From contig NZ_CP149787.1 of NCBI RefSeq assembly GCF_037914945.1, forward strand, positions 2,666,001 through 2,730,000: 64,000 bases of DNA, read 5' to 3'. Below the pieces are notes generated by a model. It saw nothing but the letters and a program-made list of their open reading frames with translations, made no database searches and was not told the origin of the DNA. Both the position numbers and the translations under genes were made by a program. The DNA is from Haloterrigena sp. KLK7 (GTDB lineage Archaea; Halobacteriota; Halobacteria; Halobacteriales; Natrialbaceae). This document shows, in pieces, positions 11,069-53,610 of this stretch (its first letter is position 1; each line of letters starts with the position of its first letter).

Positions 11069-12852
11069 TCGCTCCCCGTCTCCGTCCAGCGGGCGTCGGC
11101 CAGCGTTCGCTGGACGACGTCGTTGCCGACCGCCTCCGCGAGCGTCTCGAAGCCCGCGCGTTCGCCGCGCTCGTCGGCGTTCGCGACGAGTCTCGAGACG
11201 ATGAACTCCGGCGTCGACCGTCCGACCGTGTCGAAGCGGGGCTGGTAGTCGACCAGTAACTCGAGGTCGGGGTTCAGCCCCTCCGCGAAGATGCCGTCGA
11301 CCCGTGCCGCCGGCGGCAGCGGCTCCAGGTCGTCCGCGAGGTGGGTGACGAACACGCCTAACGCCGCTCGGTCGACGGACAGCGTCACCAGGCCGTGCAG
11401 CAGGTCCGCCGCGCTGCCCGGCTCGGTGATCGCCTCGAACTCGTCGACCAGCATCAGGGTGCGGCCGCCGGCGGACAGCGGCGGCACGATCGACCGCAGC
11501 GTCGACTCGAGGACGCCCGCGTTGAAACTCGCGTGGCGGCGGTGGAAGACCAGCGAGTCGACGGGGGTCACCTCGGCCCGCTCGGCGGGAACGGGCAGCC
11601 CCATCATCGCCAGCAGGACGACCTGACACAGCGTCTCGAGCAGCGTCGTCTTCCCGCCGCTGTTGGCGCCGGTGAGCACCGAGACCCGCTCCTCGCCGGG
11701 GACCGCGTTCACGCCCGCCGGAACGTCGGTCACGCCGTGGTCGCCGAGCGCGTAGGTGACCGGCTGGACCGACTCGTCGTCGACGGCGGCGAGCGTGAGG
11801 TTTCGGGCGTTCACGACGGAGACGGCCGCGTCCGGAGTGTCGATAAAGGTCGGCCGCGTACAGTCGTACTCCAGGGCGAACCGCGCCAGCGAGAGGTGGA
11901 GAGCGATGTCGTCGACGGCGGAGACGGCCCGCTCGACGGCGTCGCCCGTCTCCTCGAGGGTCGCCTCGAGTTCGCTCGCGACCGTTCGCTCGCGTTCGTC
12001 GATCGCTTCGGTGAGGTCGCTCCGGAGGGTTCGCAGCGTGGCGCCGACGAAGTCCGTCGCGTCGGTCGCGTCCGTCGGCATCGCGTCGCGCACCCGGTCG
12101 ACGGTCACCGCCGTCTCGGTCAGCAGGTGGTCCTCGAAGGCCTCGCGGAACCGGCCGACGTCGCGGACGCCGTCCGACCGCAGCTCCTCGATCAACTCGA
12201 GGGCGTTGGCGTCCATGTCCTCGACCGCGCCGAGCGCCTCCCGCAGGCGATCGAGCTCCTCGTCGGCGCCCTCGCGCACTCTCCCGCGGTCGTCGTCGAG
12301 CGCCGCGAGCGCCTCGGCGGCCTCCTCGAGTCGGTCCCGCTCGAGGTCGGCGATAGCGGCGAACGGTCCCGAGTCGACGCCGGCCTCGAGCAGGGCGAGC
12401 GCGGCCTCGACGGCGGCGCGCTCGCTCCCCGCGCGCTCGTCGTAGCGCTCGTAGGCCGCGAGAACGGCCTCGCGGTCGTCGGCCTCGAGTGCGGCCCAGG
12501 CGTCCCGGGCCGCGAGGACGTCGTCCAGTCGGTCCTCCATGGCCTCGCGGTCGGTCAGCGGTGTCAACACCCGAATCCGGTCGGCCGCGCGCTGCGTGAC
12601 GGCGTGTTCGACCGCCAGATCGAGCAGCTCCTTGTACGCCGATCGGGCGTCGCTCGTCGCCAGCACGTCCATCCCATCGTCGCCCGTCGCCCGGCGAAGG
12701 ATCCGCGTCGCCCGGCCGCGAGCGAGGCCGGCGTCCGCGAGCGCGCGCACGTCGCCGCTCTCGATCGCCTCGATCGCGCGCTCGTTGCCCAGTTCCTCGA
12801 CCAGCGTTTCCCTCGTCTTCGGCCCGACGCCCCAGTACTCCTCGAGTCGCAT
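11065..12852 (-). CDS. HhH-containing archaeal MutS-family ATPase
   Basis: DNA repair or recombination ATPase, 595 residues. The N-terminus (about 1-50, YWGVGPKTRETLVEELGNERAIEAIESGDVRALADAG) is a helix-hairpin-helix DNA-binding segment. Residues about 80-330 are long acidic helices resembling the MutS lever and clamp region. The C-terminal ATPase has Walker A VLTGANSGGKTTLLETL, the MutS-typical HASFNAGVLESTL segment, Walker B LMLVDEFEAI and the TEPGSAADLLHGLV signature near the dimer interface. The mismatch-recognition domain I of canonical MutS is absent, so this belongs to the archaeal MutS-related group rather than to mismatch-sensing MutS. The ATG at 12852 begins at the HhH; a start at 12885 adds MFKTVASNPTS. 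Confidence 0.85.
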   Translation of the reverse strand: MRLEEYWGVGPKTRETLVEELGNERAIEAIESGDVRALADAGLARGRATRILRRATGDDGMDVLATSDARSAYKELLDLAVEHAVTQRAADRIRVLTPLTDREAMEDRLDDVLAARDAWAALEADDREAVLAAYERYDERAGSERAAVEAALALLEAGVDSGPFAAIADLERDRLEEAAEALAALDDDRGRVREGADEELDRLREALGAVEDMDANALELIEELRSDGVRDVGRFREAFEDHLLTETAVTVDRVRDAMPTDATDATDFVGATLRTLRSDLTEAIDERERTVASELEATLEETGDAVERAVSAVDDIALHLSLARFALEYDCTRPTFIDTPDAAVSVVNARNLTLAAVDDESVQPVTYALGDHGVTDVPAGVNAVPGEERVSVLTGANSGGKTTLLETLCQVVLLAMMGLPVPAERAEVTPVDSLVFHRRHASFNAGVLESTLRSIVPPLSAGGRTLMLVDEFEAITEPGSAADLLHGLVTLSVDRAALGVFVTHLADDLEPLPPAARVDGIFAEGLNPDLELLVDYQPRFDTVGRSTPEFIVSRLVANADERGERAGFETLAEAVGNDVVQRTLADARWTETGSD

Positions 12853-16376: not shown

Positions 16377-16517
16377 TCGGCAAAACGTTGATGAAAAGCA
16401 CTCCTCCCTCCGTTCCGGTCCCTCTGGGACCTTCACATCGGTCGTCGGCCCGCTCGCTCGTTTCACTCGCTCGCGGATCTACCGGTGTCCTCGACCGATT
16501 CCTCGCCTATCGCTCTC

Positions 16518-17081
16518 TCAGTAGACCACGTGCAACAGCACGTAGACGACGATCCCCAGCGAGAAGGAGATCAGCCACAGGCTCGCAGCGACCCGGCCGA
16601 CTCGAGCGTGGTTCGTCCGGTAGAGTTCGTCGATCGGATACGCGCCGGCGAGCAGCAGCGCGTAGTAGACCAGCGGCACGCAGACGATCGCGAGGAAGAT
16701 GTGGATCGCGAGGACCGGATAGTAGACGAACTGTTTGATCGTTTCGGGACCGGGGAACGGCTGCGGGCCGCCGGTGGCGACCAGTCGGTAGAGGTAGAAC
16801 GTCAGGAAGGCCGCGAACAGGAGGAACGAGGTGACCATAGCGACGCGGTGACGGCCGACGTTCCCGCGGCGGATCGCCCGCCAGCCGACCGTGATGGTCC
16901 CGATCGCCGTCACACTGATGAGCGCATTGAGTAGGGGGATCGACTCGAGGATCCACTCCGGCGCGGTCGGTACCGTCGACTGCGGGATGCGGCCGCCCGC
17001 GGCCGCGAAGACGATCGCGAGCGAGACGACGCTCAGGACGGCCGTCAGGATATTGACGCGCTCTCGAGGGACGTATTCCAT
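16518..17081 (-). CDS. DUF420 family membrane protein
   Basis: A 187-residue integral membrane protein with about five transmembrane segments (VNILTAVLSVVSLAIVFAAAGG, LLNALISVTAIGTITVGW, VAMVTSFLLFAAFLTFYLYRLV, VLAIHIFLAIVCVPLVYYALLLAG, LWLISFSLGIVVYVLLHVVY). Conserved His residues sit in GRHRVAM, YYPVLAIHIF and YVLLHVVY, and NHARVGR is also typical. DUF420/YozB relatives are often found near haem-copper oxidase genes, but no such gene is nearby. Function unknown. Confidence 0.85.
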   Translation of the reverse strand: MEYVPRERVNILTAVLSVVSLAIVFAAAGGRIPQSTVPTAPEWILESIPLLNALISVTAIGTITVGWRAIRRGNVGRHRVAMVTSFLLFAAFLTFYLYRLVATGGPQPFPGPETIKQFVYYPVLAIHIFLAIVCVPLVYYALLLAGAYPIDELYRTNHARVGRVAASLWLISFSLGIVVYVLLHVVY

Positions 17082-38445: not shown

Positions 38446-38928
38446 ATGTACCGCGTCCTGCTCCCGGTCGATGAACACGAATCGCGAGCCCGCGCCCAGG
38501 CCGAGGCGGTCGGCGACCTGCCGGCGGCCGCCGCGGAGATCCGCGCCGACGTCCTCCACGTCCACGAGGAGGTGACGGCCCCGGACGCAGAGTGGGCGGC
38601 CGGCGGCTTCTCGGAGGAGTACGCCGAGGAGATGGCCGAAAACATCAGGAACGTCCAGCGGCTCCCCGACGCCGTCGAGACCGCCGCCGCCGTCCTCGAG
38701 TCGGCCGGCGTCGAGCACGCGATCCACGAGACGACGGGCGAAGCGCCCGCGATGATCCTCGAGGCCGCGTCGGAACTCGACAGCGACGCGATCGTCCTCG
38801 GCGTCGGCGAGCGCTCGCCGGTCGGCAAGGTCCTGTTCGGCAGCGTCGTGCAGGCGGTGATCCTCGAGAGTGATCGCCCGGTGACGGTCGTCTCCGCCGA
38901 GGAGGATGGCGACGGCGAGTCAGCGTAA
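38446..38928 (+). CDS. Universal stress protein, UspA family
   Basis: Single Usp domain, 160 residues. It begins MYRVLLPVDEHESRARAQAEAV and ends with VLGVGERSPVGKVLFGSVVQAVILESDRPVTVV, a good G-2x-G-9x-GS nucleotide-binding motif. A long internal helix (SEEYAEEMAENIRNVQRLPDAVETAAAVLE) replaces the usual shorter linker. It probably binds ATP or AMP. The gene lies alone at the GC-rich border of the AT-rich islet. Confidence 0.9.
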   Translation: MYRVLLPVDEHESRARAQAEAVGDLPAAAAEIRADVLHVHEEVTAPDAEWAAGGFSEEYAEEMAENIRNVQRLPDAVETAAAVLESAGVEHAIHETTGEAPAMILEAASELDSDAIVLGVGERSPVGKVLFGSVVQAVILESDRPVTVVSAEEDGDGESA

Positions 38929-38934
38929 CGCCAG

Positions 38935-39437
38935 TGGATCGGCTTCACTGTCAGTAGATCGTGCACGATTTCGCTATTTAGAACGAGTTGTGGGCTCCTC
39001 GACTGCACGTTACGGAATTCGCTATCTGATCGCACTCAATACCTCAATGAAGAGACAACCATAGAAATGGCTGTGAGGACTAATATAGCTACTACCAAGT
39101 AATTGCTGATAGTGTACATATAGATACCAACTAGAAGGAGCGCTGTGACAGACATAACTAGCCCAACGCGATCTCTCCCTTCATAAAAATACATATATAA
39201 ACCGATCGCAGAGGAGAGAAGAGCTAAAATTACCACGATATTTACCCTGTAGAGGAATTCAAATTGTCCCTCGCCTATACCTGTTTTGATGCCACTATGT
39301 TCTAAATATTTTTCTTTGGAGAGGCGATTAGAAGGTAGTCCGGACAGTTCCATTAGTGATTTTATATAACGAACGAGTTCACGAGGACTGCAAGCGATTC
39401 CAACGGACCGGTTGAAATCACTAAATCAACGCGCCAA
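38935..39437. other. AT-rich islet in a GC-rich chromosome
   Basis: From about 38935 to 39430 the base composition drops sharply (runs such as tttatataac, aaatattttt and cataaaaatacatatataaacc) compared with both flanks. The islet contains one orphan membrane protein gene. No integrase, terminal repeats or att-like duplication is visible at its borders, so how it arrived is unclear. Confidence 0.8.
39036..39353 (-). CDS. Orphan small membrane protein of AT-rich islet
   Basis: A 105-residue protein with a hydrophilic N-terminus (MELSGLPSNRLSKEKYLEHSGIKTGIGEGQFEF) and three transmembrane segments: VNIVVILALLSSAIGLYMYFY, VGLVMSVTALLLVGIYMYTI and YLVVAILVLTAISMVVSS. Codons rich in A and T (ATA, TTA, AAT) contrast with every neighbour. 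No family is recognised. A TATA-like tattatataa (minus strand) is only about 12 bases before the ATG, so the true start might differ. Function unknown. Confidence 0.65.
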   Translation of the reverse strand: MELSGLPSNRLSKEKYLEHSGIKTGIGEGQFEFLYRVNIVVILALLSSAIGLYMYFYEGRDRVGLVMSVTALLLVGIYMYTISNYLVVAILVLTAISMVVSSLRY

Positions 39438-51695: not shown

Positions 51696-51884
51696 TCAGC
51701 GGCGGTCGTCCGCCGAGTCTCCACCGTCGGCGGCCTCGAGTTCCTCGAGATACCGCTCGGCGTCGTACTGGACGTACCCCGTGACGACGGCGATGACCGC
51801 GAGAACGAACAGCGGGACGCCGACGAGAACGACGAGCAGTCCCACCGCGGTGAGAAATTCGGGACTGACGAGCGCCAGAGCCAT
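51696..51884 (-). CDS. Small two-helix membrane protein
   Basis: A 62-residue protein: LVSPEFLTAVGLLVVLVGVPLFVLAVIAVVTGYVQYDAERYLEELEAADGGDSADDRR, one long or two closely spaced membrane helices followed by an acidic cytosolic tail. It looks like a haloarchaeal small membrane protein; no family is recognised and no function can be given. Confidence 0.65.
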   Translation of the reverse strand: MALALVSPEFLTAVGLLVVLVGVPLFVLAVIAVVTGYVQYDAERYLEELEAADGGDSADDRR

Positions 51885-52308
51885 ACCGGTCGGAGGCGCT
51901 CGAGCGATTTAGGCGTGCGGGTTCGCTTCGCAGTAGCTAGTAACACGGCTCGTTGCGCGGTATGCTCGAGCGGGAGAGTACCGAAATGAAGCGTCCTGCT
52001 ATCGTGGCAACGGGGAGTTGCCACTCCCTCCCCAGCCGATTCGCTCCCTTCGGTCGCTCATCCACTGGAAGACGCTTCGCGTCTTCCAAGCCTCTGTTCG
52101 CTATGCTCACAGAGACCTCGCACGATGGTATCGATCGATCCTCACTGTTGCTCACGGGTCACTTCGTTCCCCGTTCGCTTTTCGAGGTGCGAACGAAGTG
52201 AGCACCTCGCTTCGTTCGGACACGATCAACAGCGCGCGCCACCGTACGCCAGACCTGTCGTCTGACACGGACTGTAGATCGTCTGAGTAAACGATGTTCC
52301 GTAGCCGC
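51885..52308. other. 424-bp region packed with mutually exclusive inverted repeats
   Basis: No gene. Perfect inverted repeats: GGCAAC/GTTGCC (52006-52011, 52017-52022); GGGAGT/ACTCCC (52013-52018, 52023-52028), which overlaps the former; a 10-bp stem with TTC loop (52066-52088); CTCTGT/ACAGAG (52092-52097, 52109-52114); CACTTCGTTC/GAACGAAGTG (52160-52169, 52191-52200); CGAGGTGC/GCACCTCG (52183-52190, 52202-52209); CGAACGAAG/CTTCGTTCG (52190-52198, 52210-52218). Several compete for the same bases. It is flanked by minus-strand genes, downstream of nreA. Confidence 0.75.
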
Positions 52309-53610
52309 TTAGTCTCGAGCGGAGAAGGCACTCAGGTTCGACTGTAGTCCCGCCGCGAGTTCGGACTTCCGTCGGAGGCGGTCGTGGGAGACCGGCAACT
52401 GCGTCGCGACCTCGGCGACCGCCTGATGGAAGGTCTCCGACTCGCCGTACTCGCCGTCGAAGGCGTTGCGCACGCTCTCGCGGACCTGCCAGACGCCGAC
52501 GGGCGCCCAGTAGTCGTCGCTCACCTCCCGGAGGACCAGACACTTCGCCTGCCGGCCGATCGACTCGAGGTGCTCCAAGACGGCCAGTCGGGCGGCGTAG
52601 TAGGCGCCGGCGGTCTCCTCGACGTAGCCCGACCGGCCCTCGAACCCCTCGCTGGCGCTGGCCATCCAGGTGTTCCCCTCCGGATCGGGGTTCCAGATGC
52701 TGCCGGGCGCCTTCATCTCGACGAGTTCGAACTCCCAGTTGCCCGGCGCGAGGACGATCCAGTAGCGGTTGCCCATGTACTCGTTGGCCCAGACCTGCAC
52801 CTCGTCGATGCTGGGCGCGTTCCGAATGCGGCCGCGCAGGAACTGGCCGACGGTGTCGTCGACCGCGGTGATCGACCACCGGGTCGGGACGAGCCGTCGC
52901 TGCTCGGTCTCGCCGAGCGCGCCGGCCGAGAGGATCGAGTTGATGTCGTAGACGTCGAAGCCCCGGCGATAGAGGTAGGTCATCGCGCCCTGGGCCTGCC
53001 AGTCGTCGTCCTCGAGGGTCTTCTTGACCGGCTTCGGGACGTAGGGGTTCTCCCGCAACTCGGCGTTGCGAGCGTTGGCGCGGGGGCCGCGGGGCGTCGC
53101 GACGTCCGTGCCGGTGTCGAGGCCCAGATCGGGCGTGTCGTCGAGCCCGATCTCGAGGTCGACCGGCCGATCCGCGATGGCGACCTCGCGCTGGACGCCG
53201 ACGAAGCCCTCCCAGGCGTCGTGGACGTTGGGCGTCAGCCGACTCGCGATGGACGGCGAGTCCACGTTCGCGCGCTTGTTGGAGTTCAGCAGCCCCGTTC
53301 GACGCTGGAGGACGTCCGGGATGTCGTACCCCTGCTGGTACCACTTCCCGTCGGTGACGTACTCCTCGGCGGCGTCCTCGTCGCCGACCGGCGAGAGCAC
53401 CCCCACGGGGATGTCCGGATAGTTCGACCGCCCGACGAAGATCGAGGGGGCCGTCGAGCCCACGAGGGAATCGCCGGACAGCGACCGCTCGAAGTTCCGC
53501 TCGAACTCCTCGAGGTGATCCGTGATCTCGTAGGACTTCTCCTTGGCGAGGCGCCGCCGCTTCGCCTCCTCATCGGGCTCTAACTCCTCGATGTAGTCGT
53601 CGAGGCGCAT
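52309..53610 (-). CDS. nreA: DNA repair protein NreA
   Basis: PCNA-associated archaeal repair protein of 433 residues, implicated in repair of DNA crosslinks and alkylation damage in Haloferax. It starts MRLDDYIEELEPDEEAKRRRLAKEKSYEITDHLEEFERNFERSL, followed by VGSTAPSIFVGRSNYPDIPVGVLSPVGDEDAAEEY and RTGLLNSNKRANVDS, typical Nre blocks, then FDVYDINSILSAGALGETEQRRLVPTRWSITAVDD. The final residues QSNLSAFSARD resemble a PCNA-interacting peptide (Q, hydrophobic residue, aromatic), as reported for the family. Confidence 0.9.
   Translation of the reverse strand: MRLDDYIEELEPDEEAKRRRLAKEKSYEITDHLEEFERNFERSLSGDSLVGSTAPSIFVGRSNYPDIPVGVLSPVGDEDAAEEYVTDGKWYQQGYDIPDVLQRRTGLLNSNKRANVDSPSIASRLTPNVHDAWEGFVGVQREVAIADRPVDLEIGLDDTPDLGLDTGTDVATPRGPRANARNAELRENPYVPKPVKKTLEDDDWQAQGAMTYLYRRGFDVYDINSILSAGALGETEQRRLVPTRWSITAVDDTVGQFLRGRIRNAPSIDEVQVWANEYMGNRYWIVLAPGNWEFELVEMKAPGSIWNPDPEGNTWMASASEGFEGRSGYVEETAGAYYAARLAVLEHLESIGRQAKCLVLREVSDDYWAPVGVWQVRESVRNAFDGEYGESETFHQAVAEVATQLPVSHDRLRRKSELAAGLQSNLSAFSARD

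What the first reader, a model, noticed from the sequence alone, without database searches (positions are those of the whole stretch)
51885..52308. Intergenic region with overlapping, mutually exclusive stem-loops
At least seven perfect inverted repeats lie within about 215 bases, and several compete for the same bases: 52160-52169 with 52191-52200, against 52190-52198 with 52210-52218, with a third stem between (52183-52190 with 52202-52209). This is the logic of an RNA switch or a DNA recombination or structure hot spot. Gene-flanking repeats in haloarchaea can also look like this, so the case is open.
Basis: partly seen in the sequence, partly recalled or inferred. Interest (0 to 1): 0.5.

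Follow-up and report, generated by a model that had tools for sequence, protein, structure and literature searches.

The report
Dispersed tandem-GA hairpin RNA element
The hairpin cluster is one copy of a large family of folded intergenic elements, about a hundred per genome in some salt-loving archaea, whose one-strand fold is kept by natural selection and probably works as RNA at the ends of transcripts.

Summary
The hairpins are real and exceed chance, but they are not a local switch. Window 51983-52243 (minus strand, downstream of nreA) is one copy of a dispersed element. The host chromosome holds 93 copies by core pattern and 106 by covariance model; none of the 93 lies on the other contigs. 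The core occurs in 161 of 391 Halobacteria genomes sampled. Copies share a fold: P1 encloses hairpin H1, then H2 and a G-rich core, with heavy compensatory change. H2 is a ladder of tandem G.A mismatches every two Watson-Crick pairs (156 of 163 GA steps intact; 50 of 60 copies perfect). Variant pairs are G.U in the sense strand (113 against 4 A.C), so the fold lives in that strand, most simply as RNA. Copies favour convergent spacers, avoid divergent ones, and pair tail-to-tail (21 of 21 close pairs in two genomes). At least 23 of 30 copies sampled from a congener sit at loci where the host also has one. Best reading: a directional transcript-boundary RNA element. The fold is well supported; the function is inferred.

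The parts
51983..52243 (-). whole element, sense strand = minus, about 261 nt in this copy (minimal copies about 150 nt)
   Evidence: matches to other copies cover this span; anchors placed
52230..52243 (-). conserved 5' block GGTGGCGCGCGCTG; CGCGCG at 52233-52238 is the 5' strand of helix P1
   Evidence: 84 places in the host genome against 9 for the reversed control; P1 pairs fully in 104 of 119 copies; position
52130..52230 (-). hairpin H1: arms 52223-52230 and 52130-52137, enclosing two nested hairpins in this copy
   Evidence: H1 stems pair in 71 of 86 own copies, shuffled mean 19; RNAalifold recovers it; position
52183..52209 (-). nested hairpin CGAGGTGC-TCACTTCGTTC-GCACCTCG whose loop is inverted relative to all 8 other parsed copies with these arms; source of the competing stems
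   Evidence: position
52150..52178 (-). nested hairpin GC-GA-ACGGG-GA-AC-GAA-GT-GA-CCCGT-GA-GC with two tandem GA steps
   Evidence: sequence; folded stem; one-step ladder found; position
52116..52124 (-). CGTGCGAGG: 3' strand of P1 (52119-52124) and start of the conserved CGYGCGAGG block
   Evidence: position
52066..52113 (-). optional two-hairpin insert: TCTGT-GA-GC-ATA-GC-GA-ACAGA (52093-52113) and TGGAAGACGC-GAA-GCGTCTTCCA (52066-52088)
   Evidence: present in some copies and absent in minimal ones; position
52038..52062 (-). hairpin H2, tandem-GA ladder GAT-GA-GC-GA-CC-GAA-GG-GA-GC-GA-ATC
   Evidence: grammar; covariation on 34 copies of the three-step class; positions
52020..52041 (-). 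invariant core AATCGGCTGGGGAGGGAGTGGC
   Evidence: 93 places in the host genome at up to 3 mismatches, 0 for the reversed control
51991..52024 (-). 3' module of this lineage: stem-loop GTGGCAAC-TCCCC-GTTGCCAC then GATAGCAGGACGC
   Evidence: shared with most own copies; replaced by other modules in other lineages
51983..51991 (-). T-rich tail CTTCATTTC
   Evidence: T over A excess at this distance in own copies

Best explanation
The region is one copy of a family of folded elements resident on haloarchaeal chromosomes. SHOWN BY COMPUTATION: high copy number; a one-strand fold (P1 enclosing H1, then H2 as a tandem-GA ladder, then a G-rich core and a lineage-specific 3' module) kept by compensatory change; intergenic placement biased to convergent spacers; tail-to-tail pairs; stable loci within the genus. 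INFERRED: the fold acts in RNA. A transcript that enters from the element's 5' side folds P1-H1-H2-core, and the T-rich tail after it marks or makes the transcript end, so the element is a directional boundary that stops read-through into the neighbour or stabilises the 3' end. Tail-to-tail pairs guard both directions. The variable hairpins are spacers under selection for shape, replaced by exchange between copies or by compensatory mutation.
For: Copy number and specificity: 93 cores, control 0; 106 by covariance model. Fold: P1 104 of 119 fully paired, shuffles max 98; H1 71 of 86, shuffled mean 19, max 30; H2 96.1% of cells paired against 81.1 shuffled, 52 double-change cells against 13.7, covariation 0.507 against 0.202, 0 of 500; RNAalifold recovers P1, H1 and H2 unprompted, 18 of 33 pairs with double changes. 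Strand: 113 G.U against 4 A.C cells; exact two-step ladders near cores are 18 on the sense strand and 0 on the other. Placement: 60 single copies with confident neighbours are 29 convergent, 24 tandem, 7 divergent, against 9, 24 and 14 of 47 window gaps. Facing pairs: 12 of 12 and 9 of 9. T over A excess after the core: 0.33 to 0.13 at +30 in own copies, 0.38-0.43 to 0.03-0.13 at +0-20 in G041, with unrelated sequences. Intergenic transcript ends in Haloferax volcanii carry a T stretch with TC, and one tested hairpin gave 59% termination (PMC7237163, passages). Persistence: at least 23 of 30 G004 copies at shared loci.
Against: No transcript data. Single copies between tandem genes show no sense bias (11 sense, 13 antisense), so an ordinary 3'UTR role for the upstream gene is not enough. 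No promoter signature upstream, so antisense copies need read-through or unmarked promoters. The T excess is absent in the G027 sample and confined to +0-10 in the low-copy set. G005 has two head-to-head pairs. Many genomes have none or one, so the function is dispensable.
Confidence: 0.48

Rival explanations
1. A REP/BIME- or PATE-like non-autonomous mobile element: hairpins in single-stranded DNA are recognised by a transposase in trans, and the fold is kept because only foldable copies move.
For: Dispersed, intergenic, patchy across genera; present in G005 and G009 where the host has none; tail-to-tail pairs as in BIMEs; REPs also show G-T pairs and alternative complementary stems (PMC3733652, passages).
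Against: No Y1 transposase in G001, G002, G003, G027, G041 or G043, all copy-rich (copy numbers). TnpB does not follow copy number (29 hits in G030 and G031, which lack the core; 2 in G002). No reverse transcriptase in 23 of 23 genomes. 0 of 93 and 0 of 83 copies off the main chromosome. Most G004 copies sampled are at shared loci.
Confidence: 0.25
2. A DNA-level chromosome-architecture element: extruded hairpins or the G-rich core bind a nucleoid protein or topoisomerase and relieve supercoils between convergent genes.
For: Chromosome-only in two genomes; convergent spacers preferred; stable loci.
Against: Strand-specific G.U tolerance and GA steps are not needed for a double-stranded DNA site; duplex DNA would not show compensatory change by itself.
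Confidence: 0.12
3. A trans-acting small RNA family or protein-binding RNA (for example a sponge for an RNA-binding protein).
For: Strongly conserved unpaired blocks GCGAGGGATGA and CGGCTGGGGAGGG; some low-copy lineages have a hairpin plus T run after it.
Against: No promoter signature in 91 own copies; copy number varies from 0 to 137.
Confidence: 0.12
4. An RNA switch built on the mutually exclusive stems.
For: The alternative pairings exist in this copy.
Against: They depend on a loop inverted only in this copy. Rfam gave nothing at gathering in the window and, in nine other loci at E <= 1, only one THF riboswitch match at E 0.99, below its cut-off.
Confidence: 0.03

Closest known systems
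Bacterial REP/BIME elements (GTAG- and CGTC-tagged repeats)
   Same: Dispersed, intergenic, palindromic, alternative complementary stems, facing pairs (PMC3733652, passages).
   Different: REPs are 20-40 bp single hairpins with a GTAG or CGTC tag; this is a 150-260 nt multi-hairpin fold with a GA ladder, and without Y1 transposase in six copy-rich genomes. 'archaea' occurs twice and 'halo' not at all in that paper's main text.
Haloarchaeal PATEs, MITEs and SMRs of Haloquadratum walsbyi
   Same: Many copies, non-coding, palindromic, in haloarchaea; repeats inserted inside repeats (PMC3119063, passages).
   Different: PATEs are IS605-like ends with near-terminal palindromes and strain-specific insertions; here an internal conserved fold, no TnpB link and mostly shared loci within the genus.
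Haloarchaeal transcription terminators (T stretch, hairpin)
   Same: Near gene 3' ends, T-rich tail with TC, hairpins upstream of some sites (PMC7237163, passages).
   Different: Those are short signals and not a sequence family; this is a large conserved fold with invariant blocks, and the T tail is not seen in every lineage.

Membership tests
REP/BIME (RAYT-linked) | short palindrome tagged GTAG or CGTC at one end | tested here: not met
   consensus of A2 and A3 has no such conserved end tag; the element is about 150-260 nt with several helices
REP/BIME (RAYT-linked) | Y1/RAYT transposase in the same genome | tested here: not met
   PF01797 absent from G001, G002, G003, G027, G041, G043, all copy-rich
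REP/BIME (RAYT-linked) | dispersed intergenic copies, often in facing pairs near gene 3' ends | tested here: met
PATE (IS605-derived) | ends shared with IS605-type/TnpB transposons | tested here: inconclusive
   none of the 93 cores lies within 2 kb of the TnpB places listed for the host (coordinates, compared by eye); end sequences were not compared
MITE | terminal inverted repeats | tested here: not met
   no listed inverted repeat pairs the 5' block 52230-52243 with the 3' end near 51983-52003 (25 of 35 pairs shown)
MITE | target-site duplication at an empty site | tested here: inconclusive
   flanks at three candidate sites have diverged too far to place the edges
TnpB omega-RNA | overlap with or adjacency to tnpB | tested here: not met
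   same coordinate comparison
Known structured RNA family | Rfam match over its cut-off | tested here: not met
   window 0 matches at gathering; nine other loci, best E 0.99 and below cut-off
Transcription terminator | T-rich tract downstream in the sense strand | tested here: inconclusive
   strong in own copies and G041, absent in the G027 sample, only +0-10 in the low-copy set
Transcription terminator | RNA 3' ends map to it | not testable with these tools
   no RNA-seq data here

The most novel reading that the evidence does not exclude
A new class of archaeal structured RNA, built on a repeating helix of two Watson-Crick pairs and a tandem sheared G.A step (a 'GA ladder'), is scattered over haloarchaeal chromosomes as a directional transcript-boundary mark, and evolves by rapid hairpin swapping that preserves its shape.
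Probability: 0.4. Interest if true: 0.8.

Novelty: new variant of a known kind. Interest (0 to 1): 0.62.

Why it matters
It explains a familiar oddity of haloarchaeal genomes (GAGCGAAGCGAG-like strings near genes; the familiarity is recalled) as a helix grammar with G.A steps that perfect-repeat searches miss. A family with dozens to more than a hundred copies in many genomes, kept in shape by compensatory change, makes transcript-end control in haloarchaea directly testable. Whole-stem replacement at fixed loci offers a natural experiment on how RNA hairpins evolve.

Tried and rejected
Literature: ten searches were answered. None of the listed titles or abstract starts describes this element. 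I read passages of PMC3119063, PMC3733652 and PMC7237163 and no whole text. Absence from print is claimed only for these searches.

First idea dropped: a sense-strand 3'UTR element of the upstream gene. The first gene-context table seemed to favour it, but a single copy in a convergent spacer is 'sense' in either orientation; the informative tandem spacers give 11 sense to 13 antisense.

Replication-strand polarity: a run of same-orientation copies in the G005 listing was an artefact of a truncated listing; the model listing has both strands, and own single copies show no clustering (29 of 68 neighbours alike, mean of shuffles 33.9).

Pseudoknot between the core GGGGA and a CCCC loop: it fits own copies, but G041 copies lack the loop, so it is not claimed. 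A G-quadruplex in the core was considered and not tested. Kink-turn or box C/D: no three-nucleotide bulge beside a GA step, by eye only.

omega-RNA of TnpB and retro-mobility: rejected. Clean insertion sites: three sites examined, edges not alignable.

Rows dropped: 3 of 133 copies unparsed, and 11 of the 130 parsed without a readable P1 hexamer; 86 of 93 own copies used for H1; the GA-step count uses the 60 copies with H2 of 25, 32 or 33 nt, out of 75 short and 130 parsed. A1 uses 34 of the 35 copies with a 33-nt H2 (one reference was a duplicate), A2 uses 46 and A3 45 chosen short copies. In one search some H2 pairs were mis-anchored by my parser (L242, L246, L258) and are not used. In one search, 25 of 30 were flagged, two of them (L249, L260) weak.

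Full report
WHAT IS THERE. The finding lies between nreA (52309-53610, minus; Nre_N and Nre_C) and a small ORF (51696-51884, minus), followed by a Na+/H+ antiporter gene. The three quoted stems exist. Five perfect inverted repeats of at least 8 nt occur in 51990-52240, against 0.22 expected from shuffles (0 of 300 reach 5). RNA folding is better than shuffles on both strands and best on the minus strand (z -6.0 against -4.2).

A DISPERSED FAMILY. Searching the host genome with the spacer gave 87 matches, the longest at 72-87% identity (40 of 130 first-look candidates were scored). The core AATCGGCTGGGGAGGGNGTGGC has 93 places at up to 3 mismatches, 43 forward and 50 reverse, with 0 for the reversed control. 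All are on contig C1 (3.84 of 4.64 Mb); random spread would give that with probability 2e-8. In G004 all 83 are on C1; G004 is probably H. turkmenica, recalled from its chromosome length. A covariance model (A3, 45 copies) finds 106 copies in the host, 143 in G005, 61 in G009, 89 in G175, 64 in G260 and 70 in G338, and none in nine of the 20 genomes searched. In a class-wide sample the core is present in 161 of 391 genomes and 46 of 86 genera, from single copies to 137. Six plasmid records carry partial matches. Phage records and IMG/VR, by exact core only, have none.

ANATOMY. In the sense strand (window minus) the order is: GGTGGCGCGCGCTG; H1; CGYGCGAGGGAYGA; H2; AATCGGYTGGGGAGGGNGTGGC; a 3' module. 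P1 pairs CGCGCG of the 5' block with CGYGCG: 104 of 119 copies pair fully, shuffles mean 91.8 and max 98; compensations include CGCACG/CGTGCG (4 copies) and CGCGTG/CACGCG (3 copies). H1 has 39 different stem heptamers among 60 well-paired copies; with register freedom 71 of 86 pair, against a shuffled mean of 19. H2 is a ladder: three pairs, then repeats of a 5'-GA-3' tandem mismatch and two Watson-Crick pairs, then a short loop. In the 60 copies of 25, 32 or 33 nt, 156 of 163 GA steps and 315 of 326 pairs are intact and 50 copies are perfect; the middle two-pair step alone takes nine forms. On the ungapped 34-copy alignment A1, 96.1% of cells pair (shuffled 81.1), 52 cells are changed on both sides (13.7), and the covariation score is 0.507 (0.202 shuffled; 0.005-0.102 with the register slid). 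RNAalifold, given no structure, returns P1, H1 and H2 on 46 copies. Related copies inflate such scores, but the sharp register and the number of double changes are hard to explain by kinship alone.

WHICH STRAND, WHICH MOLECULE. Over P1, H1 and H2 there are 113 G.U and 4 A.C cells. If the other strand were the folded one, the numbers should be reversed, and the GA steps would be T.C there. In 306 kb of host sequence, exact two-step ladders occur 18 times near cores on the sense strand, 0 times on the other strand and 3 times elsewhere. The fold therefore works in the sense strand. RNA is the simplest reading; sense single-stranded DNA is not excluded. That tandem G.A pairs of this kind are usually of the sheared type is recalled, not tested.

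WHY THE STEMS COMPETE HERE. The nested hairpin 52183-52209 has arms CGAGGTGC/GCACCTCG. In the other 8 parsed copies with these arms the sense loop is of GA...GA type; in the window copy it is TCACTTCGTTC, the reverse complement of the loop GAACGAAGTGA found in copy 1934856. An in-place inversion between the arms would explain this. The switch reading is thus copy-specific.

PLACEMENT. With genes called by codon usage (my own caller, not a published one), the 60 single copies with two confident neighbours are 29 convergent, 11 tandem-sense, 13 tandem-antisense and 7 divergent. Window gaps of at least 60 nt are 9 convergent, 24 tandem and 14 divergent of 47. Close pairs are tail-to-tail in 12 of 12 cases in the host and, read from the listing, 9 of 9 in G004. 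G005 also has two head-to-head pairs (listing; one also seen). There is no promoter signature upstream. A T-rich, A-poor stretch follows the core in own copies and in G041, with unrelated sequences, but not in the G027 sample.

EVOLUTION. The nreA-linked copy is present in all five congeners examined (L115 equals Haloterrigena salina L031) and absent after nreA in L116, L117 and L119 of other genera. In the 80 named nreA loci a core-like 14-mer lies within 400 nt after nreA only in H. salina and, as a weak opposite-strand match, in L101. At that locus the ladder step GC/GC of the host is GT/AC in L113, a compensated double change. Of 30 G004 copies, 25 were flagged and at least 23 clearly lie at loci where the host also has a copy. 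Among 21 such loci 18 keep orientation and 3 do not. Stems at fixed loci differ yet stay complementary: 2338833 and L262 share a near-identical loop but differ in three compensated stem pairs. Copies are also present in G005 and G009 where the host has none, so gains or losses occur. The 3' module differs between lineages.

WHAT DRIVES IT. Y1 transposase is missing from six copy-rich genomes, TnpB is everywhere without relation to copy number, and reverse transcriptase is absent from all 23 genomes. Active transposition by these routes is not supported.

JUDGEMENT. A structured, sense-strand element family under selection is well supported (about 0.9). That it acts as RNA is likely (about 0.75). 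That it is a directional transcript boundary is my best mechanism (0.48), chiefly on placement, facing pairs and T-rich tails; the lack of sense bias between tandem genes is the main result against it. Nothing in Rfam or in the ten paper searches matches it. It resembles REP/BIME elements in life style but fails two of their defining tests, so I file it as a new variant and not as a member.

Noticed in passing
window 16432-16537, minus strand (ladder 16451-16475): A second tandem-GA ladder hairpin in the window, just after a gene end, with a weak model match (23.9 bits, E 2e-4) but without the core. GA-ladder hairpins may exist outside this family.
   Followed up: partly
window 12300-12550: Six perfect inverted repeats in a 251-nt tile, more than in the finding's own tile; GC-rich repetitive sequence that looks coding.
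   Followed up: partly
L178 and neighbours (G005), opposite window 38570-39429: In G005 a head-to-head pair of elements sits where the 3' part of a gene stands in the host, so an element can be associated with gene truncation.
   Followed up: no
L193-L212, L271-L286: Other lineages carry unrelated 3' modules after the same core, one with GGGACTGAAAGGGGC and one with hairpins followed by TTTTT.
   Followed up: no
L244, L253, L258 against the host: At three of 21 shared loci the element lies in opposite orientation in the two species; for L244 the other species has a facing pair.
   Followed up: no
CP031304.1 (Natrinema thermotolerans, 987 kb record): A large record listed as a plasmid has six partial matches to the element, unlike the plasmid-free pattern in the host and G004.
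   Followed up: no
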